From contig QJPH01000314.1 of assembly GCA_003242955.1 (NCBI GenBank), forward strand, positions 1 to 64,000: a stretch of 64,000 nucleotides of DNA. The letters are read 5' to 3'. The position numbers and the translations under genes are program-made. Positions 13,637 through 58,356 of this stretch are shown here, piece after piece. The notes under the pieces are model-generated. The model saw only the letters and a list, made by a program, of their open reading frames with translations, did no database searches and was not told where the DNA came from. The first letter of the stretch is position 1, and each line of letters begins with the position of its first letter. Origin of the DNA: Candidatus Methylumidiphilus alinenensis. Its GTDB lineage: Bacteria; Pseudomonadota; Gammaproteobacteria; Methylococcales; Methylococcaceae.

Positions 13637-15541
13637 ATGGACTTAACGGTTTTAAAATCACGCATACCCCATTCATTTTGGCGTTTTGCGTTGGTGGGCA
13701 TCGGCGGTTTGTTAGTCGATTTGACCGTCCTCTATGTTGGCCTTTGGGGTTTGGGCTTGCCATGGTTTTTAGCGAAGGTGTTTTCCTTTTTTACCGCCGC
13801 AACATTCACTTGGTGGATGAACAGGCAATATAACTTTGGCAAAAGCGACAAATCCATCATTATTGAATGGGGAAGCTTTTTAGCAACCAATGCTTTTGGC
13901 GGCTTTGTCAATTTATCCATTTACACCGCCGCTGTCACACAGTTTCCCCCTTACGTTTGGATGCCTGCCGTGGCGACTGGATTAGGCTCGTTGGGTGGCC
14001 TATTTTTTAATTATTTGCTGTCCAAACATATCGTTTTTAGCAAAATCTCCAAGCAGGAAATCATTGCCAAGTACGCTGAGATAGCGGATGTCCCTCCTTT
14101 TCCCCGCATACTTTATTTAATCACTTTTCTTGTTTGCTTGACCTTTGGCTTGGTGGCACTTTGGTTTGGCATGGACACCCGTTGGGATTTAACAACTTAC
14201 CCACTGTACAACGATTGGGCATTTGTCAACGGACTGGCCGACAGCAATTGGCTGCTAAGCCAGATAGCCAATTTATACAATCCACTGCTGGCAGCGCCTT
14301 ATACAATGGCGACCGAACGTCTGCCCGCACAGGCCATCGGATTCGCATTGGGTACGCTTCATGGTTTTAACTTTCTGCCCTTGTCTGCCATCGCCTGGCA
14401 TCTTTTGACTTTAACCCACCCGCGCCATCGCCTTTATGCTTCTGCTATTTTGGCCTTGGTTGGGTTGTGTGGTGCCGGAGGGCTTTCCGAAATTGGCATC
14501 ATGTTTTATGACAATGTGTTAAGTTTGGGGGTGTTGGCCTCAATTCTGTTGGTGGTGTCAAACTGGAACAAAATCATCCATGGATCTAAGCTTACAAGCA
14601 TTGCCTGGACGGCCGTAGCCGGCGTTCCTGTAGGAATGGTTTTTGGGTTGAAACAATCCATGGTGATATATTGTGTTGGGCTGACGGTGGCTTTTCTTGT
14701 TGCCGACATGGCCCCACTGCGCCGGGTACGCACGAGTTTTTGCTTTGGCATCGGGGTTTTGATTGGATTCGCCTTGAGCGGGGGTTATTGGGCCGTGCAT
14801 TTGTGGAAAACCGTTGGCAATCCCTTCTTCCCTTATTTTAATCAAACATTCCGCACGCTATTGGTTCTGCCCGTTCCTTACCGGGCTCCCGATTTTATTC
14901 CGCAGGGTCTCGTTGAAAAAATTTTGTTCGTTTTTCGTTTTAGCTTCAATAGCCACTTGTGCGGAGAAACCGGCTTTCGTGATTTTCGTATTTTGGCACT
15001 ACTAATCCTACTTCTGCTGGCTGCACTGGCGAGGATTTGGCGCAAGCAGCCCCATCCTTTTACCCATCCCGGGCCTACTGTTTGGATTTTGGTGGCGGGT
15101 TTAGTGACCTATGCCATTTGGGTTCCTTGGCTTGCCATTTACCGCTATATTGTACCCTTGGAAATACTTGCCCCATTGTTGTCAATAGCCGCCATTGGGC
15201 TATTACCACTGGGAAAAAGAACACGCCTAGGCGCTGCGGTCAGCTTAATAGCTTTTTTAACTGTTTCAACGATACCAAGCCACTGGTTACAGACACCTTG
15301 GGAGGACAGCAATTCTCATTTTGGCAAAAACGCCGTCATTCCGGCTAGGATGCCGGAATCCAGTGCCATGGATCACTGCCATTATGTTAAGGATTTTCCG
15401 TTCGCACTGAGCCTGTCGAAGGGTGGACGGAAAATCCCCAGATTATTGATCGTTAAGCCGTTCATGGTTCGACAGGCTCACCACGAACGGCTTAACTTAA
15501 TGGCAGTGAGTGCCATGGATGGTAACGAGTCGGTTGAGTAG
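13637..15541 (+). CDS. GtrA-domain multi-pass membrane protein with repeat-derived C-terminus
   Basis: FWRFALVGIGGLLVDLTVLYVGLWGLGLPWFLAKVFSFFTAATFTWWMNRQYNF is GtrA-like; C-terminus FALSLSKG...MVRQAHHERL is translated repeat. Confidence 0.8.
   Translation: MDLTVLKSRIPHSFWRFALVGIGGLLVDLTVLYVGLWGLGLPWFLAKVFSFFTAATFTWWMNRQYNFGKSDKSIIIEWGSFLATNAFGGFVNLSIYTAAVTQFPPYVWMPAVATGLGSLGGLFFNYLLSKHIVFSKISKQEIIAKYAEIADVPPFPRILYLITFLVCLTFGLVALWFGMDTRWDLTTYPLYNDWAFVNGLADSNWLLSQIANLYNPLLAAPYTMATERLPAQAIGFALGTLHGFNFLPLSAIAWHLLTLTHPRHRLYASAILALVGLCGAGGLSEIGIMFYDNVLSLGVLASILLVVSNWNKIIHGSKLTSIAWTAVAGVPVGMVFGLKQSMVIYCVGLTVAFLVADMAPLRRVRTSFCFGIGVLIGFALSGGYWAVHLWKTVGNPFFPYFNQTFRTLLVLPVPYRAPDFIPQGLVEKILFVFRFSFNSHLCGETGFRDFRILALLILLLLAALARIWRKQPHPFTHPGPTVWILVAGLVTYAIWVPWLAIYRYIVPLEILAPLLSIAAIGLLPLGKRTRLGAAVSLIAFLTVSTIPSHWLQTPWEDSNSHFGKNAVIPARMPESSAMDHCHYVKDFPFALSLSKGGRKIPRLLIVKPFMVRQAHHERLNLMAVSAMDGNESVE
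15373..15508. mobile_element. MITE-like element, TIR tcactgccatta(a/t)gttaag, 11-bp TSD
   Basis: Ends tcactgccattatgttaag / cttaacttaatggcagtg; flanking direct repeat agtgccatgga at 15362-15372 and 15509-15519. Confidence 0.85.
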
Positions 15542-16840: not shown

Positions 16841-18306
16841 TCGGCGGGTGCCGGTGCTTGATCGACCGTGCTGATGGTGCGCAGCCGGTCTGATCTGATT
16901 TTCTGCGGTTCGTCGGTTTGGGCCATGAGATCGGCTTTGGGCTCGACTCCAAGGGATTTTGCCAGTTCATAGTAGGCATTCACCCGGTTGATGGCTGCTG
17001 TGTAATAGTCTAGCATGACGGATTTGTAGGTGCGCTGGGCATCAATGAAATCCAGCACGGTGGCGGCCCCGTGCCTATAAGCCAGTTCCATCCTGTCACG
17101 GGTTTGTGTGGCGTGATTGAGCAACTCCGCTTCAAAGCGCTTAACCACCGCGTTGGTGCTGACCCAGTTGGCATAGGCGTTCACCACGTCGTTGCGCACA
17201 CCCAGCTCGGTTTGCTCCGCCGCCAGCCGCGTCTGGTTGAGGTTGACAGCCGCCTTACTGACCTCGCCTTGGTATTGGTAGAACAAAGGTAGAGGCAAAC
17301 TAATGCCCACAAATCCAGTATTTAAATTCGTGTTGCCTGGGTCTAAGGCATAGCCCGCGTCCAACGTGATATCAGGAATTTTGAGGCGGCGCGCCAATTC
17401 CAAGTCCTTTTCGGCCTGGTCCGCCCGGCGTTTGTCCCCTTCCAAGTCCGGCCTAAGCGACAGTGCCTTGTTGATCATGGCATCCCGCGACAGATCCTGT
17501 CCGATGTCCTTCAACTGCGGAAAGCGGTCTTCCGCCACGAACTGCATGCTTTTGTCCGGCCAGTTCAGGATGACTGCCAGGGTGCCTTGGGCTTGCTCCA
17601 CCGCCGCCTGGGCGTTGTCGAGGTCTGAACTGGCCCGAAGACTCTCGGATTCGACGCGAAGGAGGTCAGACTCAGAGATATCCCCGCTTTGCAGACGCAA
17701 ACGGTTGCTGGCGAGGATCTCCACGTAATGGTTGACCATTTCCTGGGCCAGCCAGCGCACCTTTTGTGCCTGCAACAGGCCGAAATAGGCATCCCTTACC
17801 ACGTTGGTGAAGATGCGGATGGCATCGCGGAAATCGCTTTCGGCGGCCTGGGCGGCGATGGCACTGCTTTGCATGCGCAAGCCCCGCTTGCCCGCCATTT
17901 CGATCAACTGGGAAAGCGTGGCCCACATGCCGGGCCCGCAGTTTTGAGGGTTGGTTTGGGTGCCTATGGGGCAGCCAGCCGAAGGAGCGTTTGTGTTGGG
18001 ATTCTTACTCAACTCCCACACTTGGACACTGATATTCGGGTTGGGTATGGCGGCGGCGATGATTTCCTGGGCTTGGGCGGATTCAAGGTTGTACCGGGCG
18101 GCCAGCAGATTAAGATTGCGCTGGTAAAACAACTGGATGGCTTGTTCTTCGCTCAAGCTGACAGTTTCTGCATGCAAGCGCGGGGAAAAGGCAAAAATCC
18201 ACATCACCGCAAACACAAACAAGCATTGAATAAGCAAAGATCGGGCAAAGGATGTGTTAACCCAGATGTTTTTTTCAACGGATGACATTAGATGCCTAAC
18301 TGTCAT
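16837..18306 (-). CDS. TolC family outer membrane efflux protein (CzcC-like), copy 2
   Basis: LSEEQAIQLFYQRNLNLLAARYNLESAQAQEIIAAAIPNPNISVQVWELS; coiled-coil repeats; high similarity to 18303-19838. Confidence 0.92.
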   Translation of the reverse strand: MTVRHLMSSVEKNIWVNTSFARSLLIQCLFVFAVMWIFAFSPRLHAETVSLSEEQAIQLFYQRNLNLLAARYNLESAQAQEIIAAAIPNPNISVQVWELSKNPNTNAPSAGCPIGTQTNPQNCGPGMWATLSQLIEMAGKRGLRMQSSAIAAQAAESDFRDAIRIFTNVVRDAYFGLLQAQKVRWLAQEMVNHYVEILASNRLRLQSGDISESDLLRVESESLRASSDLDNAQAAVEQAQGTLAVILNWPDKSMQFVAEDRFPQLKDIGQDLSRDAMINKALSLRPDLEGDKRRADQAEKDLELARRLKIPDITLDAGYALDPGNTNLNTGFVGISLPLPLFYQYQGEVSKAAVNLNQTRLAAEQTELGVRNDVVNAYANWVSTNAVVKRFEAELLNHATQTRDRMELAYRHGAATVLDFIDAQRTYKSVMLDYYTAAINRVNAYYELAKSLGVEPKADLMAQTDEPQKIRSDRLRTISTVDQAPAPAE

Positions 18307-19838
18307 TCTACGGATACCGGCCGGTTTGCCGAGTTGATTGTGCGCAAACGTCCGGCATCGATTTTCTGCGGATCATCGGCATGGGCAGTGAGATCGGCAT
18401 TGGGTTCGACCGCTAGGGATTTGGCCAAGTCATAGTAAGCATTCACCCGGTTGATGGACGCTGTGTAATAGTCCAGCATCACGGACTTGTAGGTGCGCTG
18501 GGCATCGATGAAATCCAGCACGGTGGTGGCCCCGTGCCTATAAGCCAGTTCCATCCTTTCCCGGATTTGCGTGGCGTGTTTGAGCAACTCCGCTTCATAA
18601 CGTTTAACAACCTTGTTGGTGCTGACCCAGTTGGCATAGGCGCTCACCACGTCGTTGCGCACACCCAGCTCGGTTTGCTCCGCTGCCAGACGCATCTGGC
18701 TAAGGTTGACTGCCGCTTGGCCGGCCTCGCCTTGGTACTGGTAGAACACGGGAACTTCAAGGCTGACCCCCGCAAAACCAGTGTCCTTTACAACGTTACT
18801 GGGATCCCTCGCATAGCCCGCGTTTACCGTCACATCGGGGTATTTCAGGCGGTGCGCCAAAACTAAATTCTTTGCGGCCTGGTCCGCCCGCTGTTTGTCC
18901 CCTTCCAAGTCCGGCCTAAGCGACAGCGCCTTGTTGATCATGGCTTCCCGCGACAGGTCCTGCCCGATGTCCTTGAACTGCGGCTGGCGGTCCTCCGCCA
19001 CGAACTGCATGCTTTTGTCCGGCCAGTTCAGGATGGTCGCCAGGCTGCCTTGGGCTTGCTCCACCGCCGCCTGGGCGTTGTCGAGGTCTGAATTGGCCCT
19101 GAGACTCTCAGTCTCTATGCGGATGAAATCCGATTCGGCGATATCGCCGGCCTGAAAGCGCAAACGGTTGCTGGCGACGATATCCTTGTAATAATTGACA
19201 ATTTCCTGCATCAGCCCACGCACCTGCTGTGCCTGCGCCAGACCGTAATAGGCATCCCTTACCATGTTGGAGAAGATGCGGACGGCATCGCGGAAATCGC
19301 TTTCGGCGGCTTGGGTGGCGATGGCGCTGCTTTGCATGCGCAAGCCCCGCTTGCCCGCCATTTCGATCAATTGGCTGAACGTGGCATACATGGCAGGTCC
19401 GCAGTTTATATTCCCGCCCGTGGCGCTTGTTGGGCAACCTTGCGCTGTGGCGTTTTGGTTGGGATTCCTGCTCAACTCCAACACTTGGACGCTGATGGTC
19501 GGGTTGGGGATGGCGGCGGCGATGACCTCTTGGGCCCGGTAGTTGTCGATGTTGTAACGCGCCGCCAGCAGATTTAGGTTGCGTTGGTAGAACAGCGCAA
19601 TCGCCTGGCCTTCCGATAGTTTGACGGGTTCCGCCGCCAGGGCCAGCGAGGATGACAAGGAAATCAAAACCAAACCGGCAAGCCAAAACCTGAGAATTGC
19701 TGAATATCCAAAACAATGACAGGGCTTTGGCGTGTAGTTGTCGGGGGCATGGCCCATTCTTACATAGCCATTTATAGGGTTGGTTTTGTTCATGGGGATG
19801 TTAAAATGGTTCATTCCGGCCATAATAGTGCGCGGCAT
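18303..19838 (-). CDS. TolC family outer membrane efflux protein (CzcC-like), copy 1; real start may be downstream
   Basis: LSEGQAIALFYQRNLNLLAARYNIDNYRAQEVIAAAIPNPTISVQVLELS; tandem paralogue. Confidence 0.92.
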   Translation of the reverse strand: MPRTIMAGMNHFNIPMNKTNPINGYVRMGHAPDNYTPKPCHCFGYSAILRFWLAGLVLISLSSSLALAAEPVKLSEGQAIALFYQRNLNLLAARYNIDNYRAQEVIAAAIPNPTISVQVLELSRNPNQNATAQGCPTSATGGNINCGPAMYATFSQLIEMAGKRGLRMQSSAIATQAAESDFRDAVRIFSNMVRDAYYGLAQAQQVRGLMQEIVNYYKDIVASNRLRFQAGDIAESDFIRIETESLRANSDLDNAQAAVEQAQGSLATILNWPDKSMQFVAEDRQPQFKDIGQDLSREAMINKALSLRPDLEGDKQRADQAAKNLVLAHRLKYPDVTVNAGYARDPSNVVKDTGFAGVSLEVPVFYQYQGEAGQAAVNLSQMRLAAEQTELGVRNDVVSAYANWVSTNKVVKRYEAELLKHATQIRERMELAYRHGATTVLDFIDAQRTYKSVMLDYYTASINRVNAYYDLAKSLAVEPNADLTAHADDPQKIDAGRLRTINSANRPVSVE

Positions 19839-41314: not shown

Positions 41315-41755
41315 ATGTTTTTGATATCAAAGTTTACCTCCTTGCTTTTAGTTATTTTCTTGGTCTCTTGCGCGAGTTTACAGCAACAGCAATCTACACC
41401 TAGTCTGCTGGACACGGAGTGGCTTCTGGAAGATTTGGGTGGCAAGGGTGTGCTGGACCGAATCCAGGCGACACTGGCCTTTCCTGCCCCTAATAAAGCC
41501 GCTGGAAATGGTTCCTGTAACCGGTTCTTTGGAGGGGTGGAAATTAAAGGCGAGACAATCAAATTCGACCAATTGGCTACGACCCTCATGGCCTGCCCTA
41601 GCGAAGCAATCTCAAATCAGGAATCAAATTATTTGCTAGCACTCCAGAAGGCTGAAAGGGTTGTCATTGATGGCCCATTTCTATTGATCTACGCGAAGGA
41701 ACTCGATAAGCCATTACGGTTTACTCGGATCAGCCATACAGGAAAGCCACAATAA
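41315..41755 (+). CDS. META-domain (HslJ-like) lipoprotein
   Basis: Lipobox FLVSCASLQ; LLDTEWLLEDLGG...ATLAFPAPNKAAGNGSCNRFFGGVEIKGETIKFDQLATTLMACP. Confidence 0.88.
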   Translation: MFLISKFTSLLLVIFLVSCASLQQQQSTPSLLDTEWLLEDLGGKGVLDRIQATLAFPAPNKAAGNGSCNRFFGGVEIKGETIKFDQLATTLMACPSEAISNQESNYLLALQKAERVVIDGPFLLIYAKELDKPLRFTRISHTGKPQ

Positions 41756-41921
41756 GGTGATTTCCAATAATGAATCCACCAAAACCGAAATGAATTGTCC
41801 ACGAAAATCACCAACAATTCCTCCACAAATCACCTTGCCAAGCTGGAGCTTGGCGTTCCTTCTGGGAGCGCCAAGCCCCAGCTTGGCCTTTGGATGGGAT
41901 GTTCTTTATTGGATATCACCT
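41755..41921. mobile_element. MITE-like element family B, copy 1 (167 bp)
   Basis: TIR aggtgatttccaataa / ttattggatatcacct; near-identical copies at 52479 and 58205. Confidence 0.85.
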
Positions 41922-42130
41922 AAGACGATATGCTAGGATTGGCACGGACAAGCCTAACAACAATTCTCAGTTTGGCTAGAACGCTGTCATTCCGGCCTGG
42001 ATGACGAGCTATTTTTCATGGCTTCGGCTCAAAATGAGAATTGCTGGAAACTTAACTACCTGCCCGGATTGGCGCGGAGTTTCGTGTATAATAAAGGGTT
42101 TGCAATTGATAGCAACCTTGCGCCGTCCTT

Positions 42131-47549: not shown

Positions 47550-47728
47550 TACCGCGTTTTCAATAGCAAATTTTTGCTCGTTCCCAAGCTCCTGCTTGGG
47601 AATAGGGTTTTTGAAGCTCCCGCTTCTCTAAGAACAGCCAAGCTGGAGTTTGCAAGAAAAGAGTTCCCAAGCCGGAAAAGTCGTCGTTTCGGCAGGGATG
47701 CCGAAATCCAGGCAATGGACGGTAACTA

Positions 47729-47892: not shown

Positions 47893-48067
47893 TAGTCGGT
47901 TGTGCAAATGCTTGATTCAGGTAACATGCCATCCTGTAGCTTCATGTTCGCGGTTTCTGGGGCATCTGTCGTGGCCCCGGTTTTGCCATCCTTGGACGCT
48001 GGATTTCGGCATCCCTGCCGAAATGACGGGACTCCAATACTTGTGTATAAGGATGAGAGCCGGAGCT

Positions 48068-48213
48068 TCACTGCCTTTAAGTTAAGCCGTCATACCGGCA
48101 TGGATTGCCGGTATCCAGAACACAGGGAGGTGAATCTAGCCCGCCATCCATGGCCTTTGGGTTCCGGCATTCCCTGCCGGAACGACGGGTTTTTCCTTAA
48201 CTTAATGGCAGTG
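48068..48213. mobile_element. MITE-like element, TIR tcactgcctttaagttaag, 10-bp TSD
   Basis: agccggagct at 48058-48067 and 48214-48223 flank tcactgcctttaagttaag ... cttaacttaatggcagtg. Confidence 0.85.
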
Positions 48214-48281
48214 AGCCGGAGCTTGGGAACCAGCCTGACTTCTTTCGGGAAGTTGTTTTTGACCAAATCCTAACCATAAAG

Positions 48282-52334: not shown

Positions 52335-52673
52335 CGGCTATCAGCTTAAGGCGGGACAGACCCAAAGCTTAACCGTTCGCCCTGAGCTGCGAGCCTGTCG
52401 AGCAGTCGAAGATTGGACGGTTAAGCCGTTCATGCTTCGATCCTTCGACAAGCTCAGGACTCACCACGAACGGCCTTAAGGTGATTTCCAATAATGAATC
52501 CACCAAAACCGAAATGAATTGTCCACGAAAATCACCAACAATTCCTCCACAAATCACCTTGCCAAGCTGGAGCTTGGCGTTCCTTCTGGGAGCGCCAAGC
52601 CCCAGCTTGGCCTTTGGATGGGATGTTCTTTATTGGATATCACCTAAACTGTCCCGCCTTAAGTTAATAGCCG
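52335..52673. mobile_element. Compound repeat bounded by 25-bp inverted repeats
   Basis: cggctatcagcttaaggcgggacag (52335-52359) versus rc of ctgtcccgccttaagttaatagccg (52649-52673), 2 mismatches; encloses a palindrome and family B copy 2. Confidence 0.75.
52479..52645. mobile_element. MITE-like element family B, copy 2 (167 bp)
   Basis: Near-identical to 41755-41921. Confidence 0.85.
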
Positions 52674-54088: not shown

Positions 54089-54160
54089 CACTGCCATTAA
54101 GTTAAGCGTTCCATCAAAGGCTGATTTCACGCTTAATACATCTTAACTTAATGGCATTGA
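54089..54160. mobile_element. Short MITE-like element of the cactgccattaagttaag family, no TSD seen
   Basis: cactgccattaagttaagcg ... cttaacttaatggcattga. Confidence 0.65.
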
Positions 54161-54357: not shown

Positions 54358-54434
54358 GCCAAGAGGCCAAGAGGCCAAGAGGCCAAGAGGCCAAGAGGCC
54401 AAGAGGCCAAGAGGCCAAGAGGCCAAGAGGCCAA
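54358..54434. repeat. 8-bp tandem repeat (aagaggcc), 9 full copies plus partial ends
   Basis: Uninterrupted aagaggcc x9 from 54361 to 54432. Confidence 0.98.
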
Positions 54435-54486
54435 AAGTACACCGAATGTCAGCATTTTGTTGGCCTGCAACCTAAATATTTTTTTT

Positions 54487-57665: not shown

Positions 57666-57724
57666 GAGGGTATGGTCAAAAACAACTTCCCGAAAGAAGT
57701 CTGGCTGTTTACCAGGCTCCGGCT

Positions 57725-57855
57725 TCACTGCCATTAAGTTAAGCGTTTAATCGGAACGCCAAGCCCCCATCAGGGTGTACCGCGCCAAACTGGGGCTTGG
57801 CGTTCCGTCAAAGGCTGATTTCACGCTTAATGCATCTTTAACTCAATGGCAGTGA
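57725..57855. mobile_element. MITE-like element, TIR tcactgccattaagttaag, 10-bp TSD
   Basis: ggctccggct at 57715-57724 and 57856-57865 flank tcactgccattaagttaagcg ... ctcaatggcagtga. Confidence 0.85.
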
Positions 57856-58001
57856 GGCTCCGGCTCTCATCGTTACACACAAATGTTTGAGGCCCGTCAT
57901 CCCGGCCGGAATGACGGATTTTCCAGTTTGGCTGGACTCGTGTATTATGAGTCGAGCTAGAGCTTGGGAATGAACAAAATATCTATTCTATCGTTTTCCT
58001 T

Positions 58002-58204: not shown

Positions 58205-58356
58205 AGGTGATTTCCAATAATGAATCCACCAAAACCGAAATGAATTGTCCACGAAAATCACGAACAATTCCTCCGCAAAACCTTGCCAAGCTGGGGCTTG
58301 GCGTTCCTTCTGGGAGCGCCAAGCCCCAGCTTGGCCTTTGGATGTGGACATCACCT
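58205..58356. mobile_element. MITE-like element family B, copy 3 (152 bp, internally shortened)
   Basis: aggtgatttccaataatgaatccaccaaaaccgaaatgaattgtccacgaaaatcac shared with copies 1 and 2. Confidence 0.8.

What the first reader, a model, noticed from the sequence alone, without database searches (positions are those of the whole stretch)
48058..48223. Same element family inserted at the gctccggct site of the composite repeat
Seen: agccggagct (48058-48067 and 48214-48223) flanks a TIR-bounded element. The empty site gatgagagccggagcttgggaacc is the normal composite repeat. The copy at 57.7 kb went into the same sequence motif, ggctccggct. Two independent insertions at the equivalent point of the same host repeat suggest target specificity, so one repeat acts as landing pad for another.
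Basis: partly seen in the sequence, partly recalled or inferred. Interest (0 to 1): 0.75.

Follow-up and report, generated by a model that had tools for sequence, protein, structure and literature searches.

The report
Mini-transposon that targets DNA hairpin repeats
The window holds four copies of a small gene-less transposon, present in well over a hundred copies in this genome (related to methane-oxidising bacteria), that very often lands in the exact tip of another repeated DNA hairpin; an enzyme of the long-known IS4 family almost certainly moves it, and it carries other hairpin repeats as exchangeable cargo.

Summary
Confirmed and explained. 48069-48213 is a 145-bp element with 18-bp inverted ends (CACTGCCATTAAGTTAAG) and an exact 11-bp target duplication, AGCCGGAGCTT. 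The same ends bound 57726-57854, 15374-15508 and 54089-54159, and occur 279 times in the genome. The copies at 48 and 57.7 kb entered the same position of the same host repeat but carry unrelated interiors, so they are independent.

Genome-wide, about half of the copies with a clear duplication sit in the apex of TTCCC-N11/12-GGGAA hairpins. The duplication is exactly the spacer, 11 or 12 bp as the hairpin dictates (25/25 here, 13/13 in two relatives). Targeting follows a palindrome, core A-N-S-C-N3/4-G-S-N-T, not just ggctccggct.

A full-length relative in Methylocaldum sp. 14B (1396 bp, same ends, in CCCC[CGGCAGAGCCG]GGGG) encodes an IS4-family DDE/YREK transposase. The host genome retains only a decayed copy, in the same hairpin. 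These are IS4-family MITEs; hairpin-targeting IS4 elements were known (ISRm22).

Unexpected: the ends enclose at least nine unrelated hairpin cargoes, and one cargo, a CGTC-tagged REP dimer, recurs at 95-99% identity between a different pair of ends. CGTC REPs were reported to lack a transposase; riding in IS4-type MITEs is a testable answer.

The parts
48069..48213 (.). IS4-type MITE copy, 145 bp, cargo = CGTC-tagged REP-like dimer (subtype CGTCATACCGGC)
48069..48086 (+). left 18-bp terminal inverted repeat CACTGCCTTTAAGTTAAG
48196..48213 (-). right 18-bp terminal inverted repeat CACTGCCATTAAGTTAAG
48058..48068 (.). left target-site duplication AGCCGGAGCTT (11 bp)
48214..48224 (.). right target-site duplication AGCCGGAGCTT, followed by GGGAACC of the host repeat
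57726..57854 (.). second copy at the equivalent point of the host repeat, 129 bp, unrelated cargo (GGAACGCCAAGC hairpin)
57714..57725 (.). left duplication AGGCTCCGGCTT
57855..57866 (.). right duplication AGGCTCCGGCTC (one mismatch to the left copy)
15374..15508 (.). third copy, 135 bp, third cargo type (CCGTTCG..GTCGAAGG palindromes), in the motif AGTGCCATGGAT of another repeat
15362..15373 (.). left duplication AGTGCCATGGAT (12 bp)
15509..15520 (.). right duplication AGTGCCATGGAT (12 bp)
54089..54159 (.). fourth copy, 71 bp, internally deleted, no recognisable duplication
47580..47603 (.). empty hairpin target of the same kind, GTTCCC AAGCTCCTGCTT GGGAAT (12-bp spacer)
57672..57713 (+). host composite-repeat flank (GGTCAAAAACAACTTCCCGAAAGAAGTCTGGCTG..), also at the 48-kb copy and 5 other sampled places

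Best explanation
The element is a non-autonomous miniature transposon (MITE) moved by an IS4-family (IS4 subgroup) DDE transposase acting on its 18-bp ends. The transposase prefers palindromic targets, best of all the apex of abundant TTCCC-N11/12-GGGAA hairpin repeats, and joins the ends right beside the two TTCCC/GGGAA half-sites, so the duplicated target is the whole spacer, 11 or 12 bp as the hairpin dictates. The 48-kb and 57.7-kb copies are two independent events into the end motif of one composite repeat. Shown: ends, duplications, target preference, spacer tracking, a cognate transposase gene with the same ends and target type in related genomes, and a decayed one in this genome. Inferred: that this transposase moves these MITEs, that the two half-sites are read by the two subunits of the complex, and that the interior is passive cargo.
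For: 279 TIR ends in the genome, none for the reversed control. 67 paired elements in the first sample, 48 with clear duplications, 28 of 11 bp and 19 of 12 bp. Using a hairpin definition with free spacer length, 25 own insertions lie in hairpins: 14 with spacer 11/duplication 11 and 11 with spacer 12/duplication 12, no exception; 9/9 in a congener (G006) and 4/4 in a genome of another family of the order (G043). In noncoding DNA, 17 insertions against 54 empty hairpins versus 5 against 892 core-only palindromes, Fisher p about 1e-16. 13 different hairpin duplications in the own genome exclude amplification of one insertion. Full IS, 1396 bp, same ends, target CCCC[CGGCAGAGCCG]GGGG, in Methylocaldum sp. 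14B; transposase matches NF033592 IS4 with 162.7 bits (cut-off 115) and Pfam DDE_Tnp_1, with D-80-D-108-E and Y(2)R(3)E(6)K. Decayed own copy behind GTTCCCACGCTCTACGT and a contig-end copy in congener G006 beside ACGCTGGAGCGTGGGAAC.
Against: No intact cognate transposase was found in the own draft genome (597 contigs), so present mobility is unproven. Roughly half of the clear insertions are outside intact hairpins, and 19 pairs of the first own sample have no clear duplication, showing decay or recombination between copies. Many sampled contigs were chosen because they hold copies, so occupancy fractions are biased upward. Outside hairpin sites the half-site arms are weak: there the strong positions are the A/T and C/G inside the duplication.
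Confidence: 0.9

Rival explanations
1. The two window copies descend from one insertion by duplication of the locus, or hairpin and MITE spread together as one unit (for instance by a REP-associated tyrosine transposase).
For: The two loci share about 30 bp of host-repeat flank beyond the target; some hairpin types recur with an element.
Against: Different cargo families and lengths (145 vs 129 bp), different genes beside them, 5 other copies of the flank without the element, 13 different hairpin duplications, and insertions outside hairpins with exact duplications.
Confidence: 0.04
2. The transposase has little site preference; insertions survive mostly in intergenic hairpins because they do no harm there.
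For: Hairpins are largely intergenic, and insertions that keep a palindrome might be tolerated (inference).
Against: Within noncoding DNA alone the rate per hairpin is tens of times that per matching palindrome, insertions are registered to the base at the spacer edges, and even sites without hairpin arms keep an A..C/G..T palindromic core (p 2e-11 and 2e-8).
Confidence: 0.05
3. The transposase recognises an extruded cruciform or hairpin structure rather than base sequence.
For: The palindromic apex is hit in hairpins of different sequence, including CCCCCGGCAGAGCCGGGGG in Methylocaldum, and duplication length follows the hairpin.
Against: Non-hairpin sites keep specific bases (A at +1, C at +4), as expected from sequence reading of two half-sites.
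Confidence: 0.2

Closest known systems
ISRm22 of Sinorhizobium meliloti (IS4 family, IS4Sa subgroup; PMC1525189, PMC2266710)
   Same: IS4-family element inserted at the symmetry axis of REP palindromes
   Different: Autonomous IS with 6-bp duplications, 9 copies; here MITEs with 11-12 bp duplications that follow the hairpin spacer, over a hundred copies
IS4 of E. coli and the IS4 subgroup (PMC2266710; NC_000913 copy read here)
   Same: Ends TAATGCC..AGTTAAG match 13-14 of 18 positions, 12-bp duplication at the MG1655 copy, transposase homologous (24% identity, E 8e-15); some subgroup members are reported to show strong specificity in the target arms
   Different: E. coli IS4 is autonomous and its MG1655 site is not a hairpin repeat
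IS1397 / ISKpn1 (IS3), IS621 and ISPpu9/10 (cited in PMC1525189)
   Same: Target REP palindromes
   Different: Other transposase families, other duplications, autonomous
CGTC- and GTAG-tagged REP dimers (PMC3733652)
   Same: The commonest cargoes here include CGTC dimers; that paper also notes REP dimers lying inside larger palindromes
   Different: There CGTC REPs had no known transposase; here many are bounded by IS4-type ends with duplications

Membership tests
IS4 family (IS4 subgroup), autonomous partner | DDE with D(60-110)D(100-150)E | tested here: met
   D131-80-D212-108-E321 in P0001 (ranges)
IS4 family (IS4 subgroup), autonomous partner | Y(2)R(3)E(6)K signature | tested here: met
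   YAWRWGIETFYGLLK at 314
IS4 family (IS4 subgroup), autonomous partner | Curated family model | tested here: met
   NF033592 162.7 bits, cut-off 115
IS4 family (IS4 subgroup), autonomous partner | Duplications of 10-13 bp, length about 1400-1650 bp, single ORF | tested here: met
   11 bp, 1396 bp (4 bp short of the stated typical range), one open frame of 449 codons (ranges)
IS4 family (IS4 subgroup), autonomous partner | Ends -AATR------- of the subgroup | tested here: inconclusive
   Ends are CACTGCC.. here (position 3 is C), while the 34-35% identical relatives have CAATGCC..
MITE | Under 300 bp, TIRs, target duplications, many copies, no transposase | tested here: met
   mostly 112-146 bp, 18-bp TIRs, 11-12 bp duplications, 279 ends
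MITE | Mobilised in trans by a cognate transposase | not testable with these tools
   Only identity of ends and target with the IS supports it
REP/RAYT system (IS200/IS605-like) | No terminal inverted repeats with target duplication | tested here: not met
   The elements have TIRs and 11-12 bp duplications; the defining feature is from general knowledge of Y1 transposition

The most novel reading that the evidence does not exclude
The ends are interchangeable brackets: several IS4-type end pairs carry the same set of hairpin repeats as cargo, exchanging ends around a constant cargo and cargo between constant ends. CGTC-tagged REP dimers, which had no known transposase, would spread largely as such cargo, and the hairpins in turn serve as landing pads, so the repeat families of these genomes form one mutually nesting system.
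Probability: 0.4. Interest if true: 0.75.

Novelty: new variant of a known kind. Interest (0 to 1): 0.5.

Why it matters
It explains the layered composite repeats of these genomes: one repeat's palindromic apex is the preferred target of another, and inserting a palindrome into a palindrome keeps a hairpin. The exact agreement of duplication length with hairpin spacer gives a natural data set on how an IS4-type complex positions its two cuts. The CGTC-dimer cargo offers a concrete, testable answer to how a widespread REP class without a transposase could move.

Tried and rejected
Rfam: no match in the window. DDE_Tnp_1 and Nterm_IS4 searches of the own genome gave only genes without these ends. 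A 1033-bp pair at L026 looked like a full IS but encloses a repeat-rich 254-codon frame (curli-subunit-like by eye, not tested), not a transposase. Plasmid collection: no match. Duplication of one insertion: rejected. First idea that CCC/GGG arms alone define the site: at sites without hairpin arms the inner A..C/G..T palindrome is stronger.

Full report
OBSERVATION. The stated repeats are present. The element is 48069-48213 with 18-bp inverted ends and an exact 11-bp duplication AGCCGGAGCTT. The same ends bound 57726-57854, 15374-15508 and a 71-bp remnant 54089-54159. The TIR pattern gives 8 matches in the window against 0.12 expected and 279 in the 6.57-Mb genome against none for the reversed control.

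TARGET. In 1.89 Mb of the own genome (plus 3-kb loci) 67 pairs were found, and 7 more in a further 0.27 Mb. 48 of the first 67 show a clear duplication, 28 of 11 bp, 19 of 12 bp and one of 13. About half lie in TTCCC-N-GGGAA hairpins. With a hairpin definition that leaves spacer length free, all 25 own cases put the duplication exactly on the spacer: 14 with 11 bp, 11 with 12 bp. Congener G006 gave 9/9 and G043, of another family in the order, 4/4. Empty hairpins in the first sample number 84 with spacer 12 and 16 with spacer 11, so 11-bp hairpins are used more often per site (odds ratio 6.7, p 1e-4; the occupied and empty counts come from slightly different samples). At sites without hairpin arms the preferred bases are A at the first and C at the fourth position of the duplication, and symmetrically at the other side. 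In noncoding DNA 17 insertions against 54 empty hairpins compare with 5 against 892 core-only palindromes. The coding mask was crude and many contigs were chosen for holding copies; both affect absolute rates more than the contrast.

INDEPENDENCE. The 48- and 57.7-kb copies hit the same point of one composite repeat, whose flank occurs at 7 sampled places, 5 of them without the element. Their interiors belong to unrelated families, they lie beside different genes (a MoxR-type AAA ATPase and a transglutaminase-like gene), and their duplications differ.

PARTNER. A pattern search of relatives found a 1396-bp element with these ends in G026, identified as Methylocaldum sp. 14B, duplicated target CCCC[CGGCAGAGCCG]GGGG. 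A MITE of that genome sits in the matching palindrome CCCC[CGGCTCTGCCG]GGGG (the right-hand copy has one mismatch). Its transposase has the IS4 model, DDE spacing and YREK signature. The own genome keeps a fragment (65% identity) behind GTTCCCACGCTCTACGT|CACTGTCATTAAGTTAAG, and G006 a contig-end copy beside ACGCTGGAGCGTGGGAAC. E. coli IS4 has related ends (13-14 of 18) and a 12-bp duplication.

MECHANISM. Most likely cut-and-paste by an IS4-type complex that reads two inverted half-sites and joins the ends at their inner edges; the 11/12-bp flexibility fits the 10-13 bp range of the IS4 subgroup. Shown: the correlation. Inferred: subunit reading and trans-mobilisation.

CARGO. Interiors fall into at least nine unrelated families in the own genome, each an inverted repeat, mostly with total lengths of 112-146 bp. 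A second end type, CAATRCTGTTGAATTAAG (13 of 18 identical to the first), brackets the same CGTC dimer; the best pairs are 95-99% identical over about 101 nt with the same total length of 145 bp. Of 128 CGTC dimers (127 classifiable), 30 have the first ends on both sides, 9 the second, 17 one recognisable end of either type, and 27 another flanking inverted repeat (observed 27 of 71 among the remainder, shuffled-pair control 14%). CGTC REPs were said to lack a dedicated transposase (PMC3733652). How ends are exchanged is unknown; both end types finish in TTAAG, where a junction could form (inference).

PRIOR ART. REP targeting by IS families including IS4 (ISRm22) is known (PMC1525189), as is strong target-arm specificity in the IS4 subgroup with 10-13 bp duplications (PMC2266710), and REP dimers inside palindromes (PMC3733652). 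I found no description of this MITE family, of duplication length tracking hairpin spacer, or of end exchange around a REP cargo; the library searched holds open-licence papers only.

Noticed in passing
L031:17219-17363, L079:1967-2111, L104:1160-1304, L105:298-442, L206:10264-10408: A second MITE end type, CAATRCTGTTGAATTAAG, encloses the same 109-nt CGTC-dimer cargo (95-99% identity over about 101 nt, total 145 bp) as the first end type: apparent exchange of ends around a constant cargo.
   Followed up: partly
own-genome sample, e.g. L097:1253-1351, L062:9760-9900, L101:14027-14167: CGTC dimers, often about 100 nt long, are also flanked by other recurring inverted repeats (CCTGATTAGnAAGATGTTTCAGCTA, CAGCAATTCTCATTTTGGCTA, GCTCTCATCGTTATACACAAGT), the last being part of the composite repeat of the window.
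   Followed up: partly
window 41753-41923 and 52477-52647: A 171-bp sequence repeated at 100% identity, with a third copy at 97-98% near 58205 (AGGTGATTTCCAATAATGAATCCACC..): a recent dispersed repeat; a similar start lies just inside TIR-like ends in congener G006 (L174:5660).
   Followed up: no
window 54358-54437: Nearly perfect 8-bp tandem repeat GCCAAGAG, about ten copies, a possible phase-variation tract.
   Followed up: no
window 15374-15508: The third MITE lies inside the 3' end of the 634-codon frame 13637-15541 (GtrA-like domain), so the frame runs through the element and ends just beyond its right duplication.
   Followed up: no
window 16866-18171 and 18329-19634: Two adjacent reading frames on the minus strand share long stretches at 73-88% DNA identity (spacing 1463), a tandem gene duplication.
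   Followed up: no
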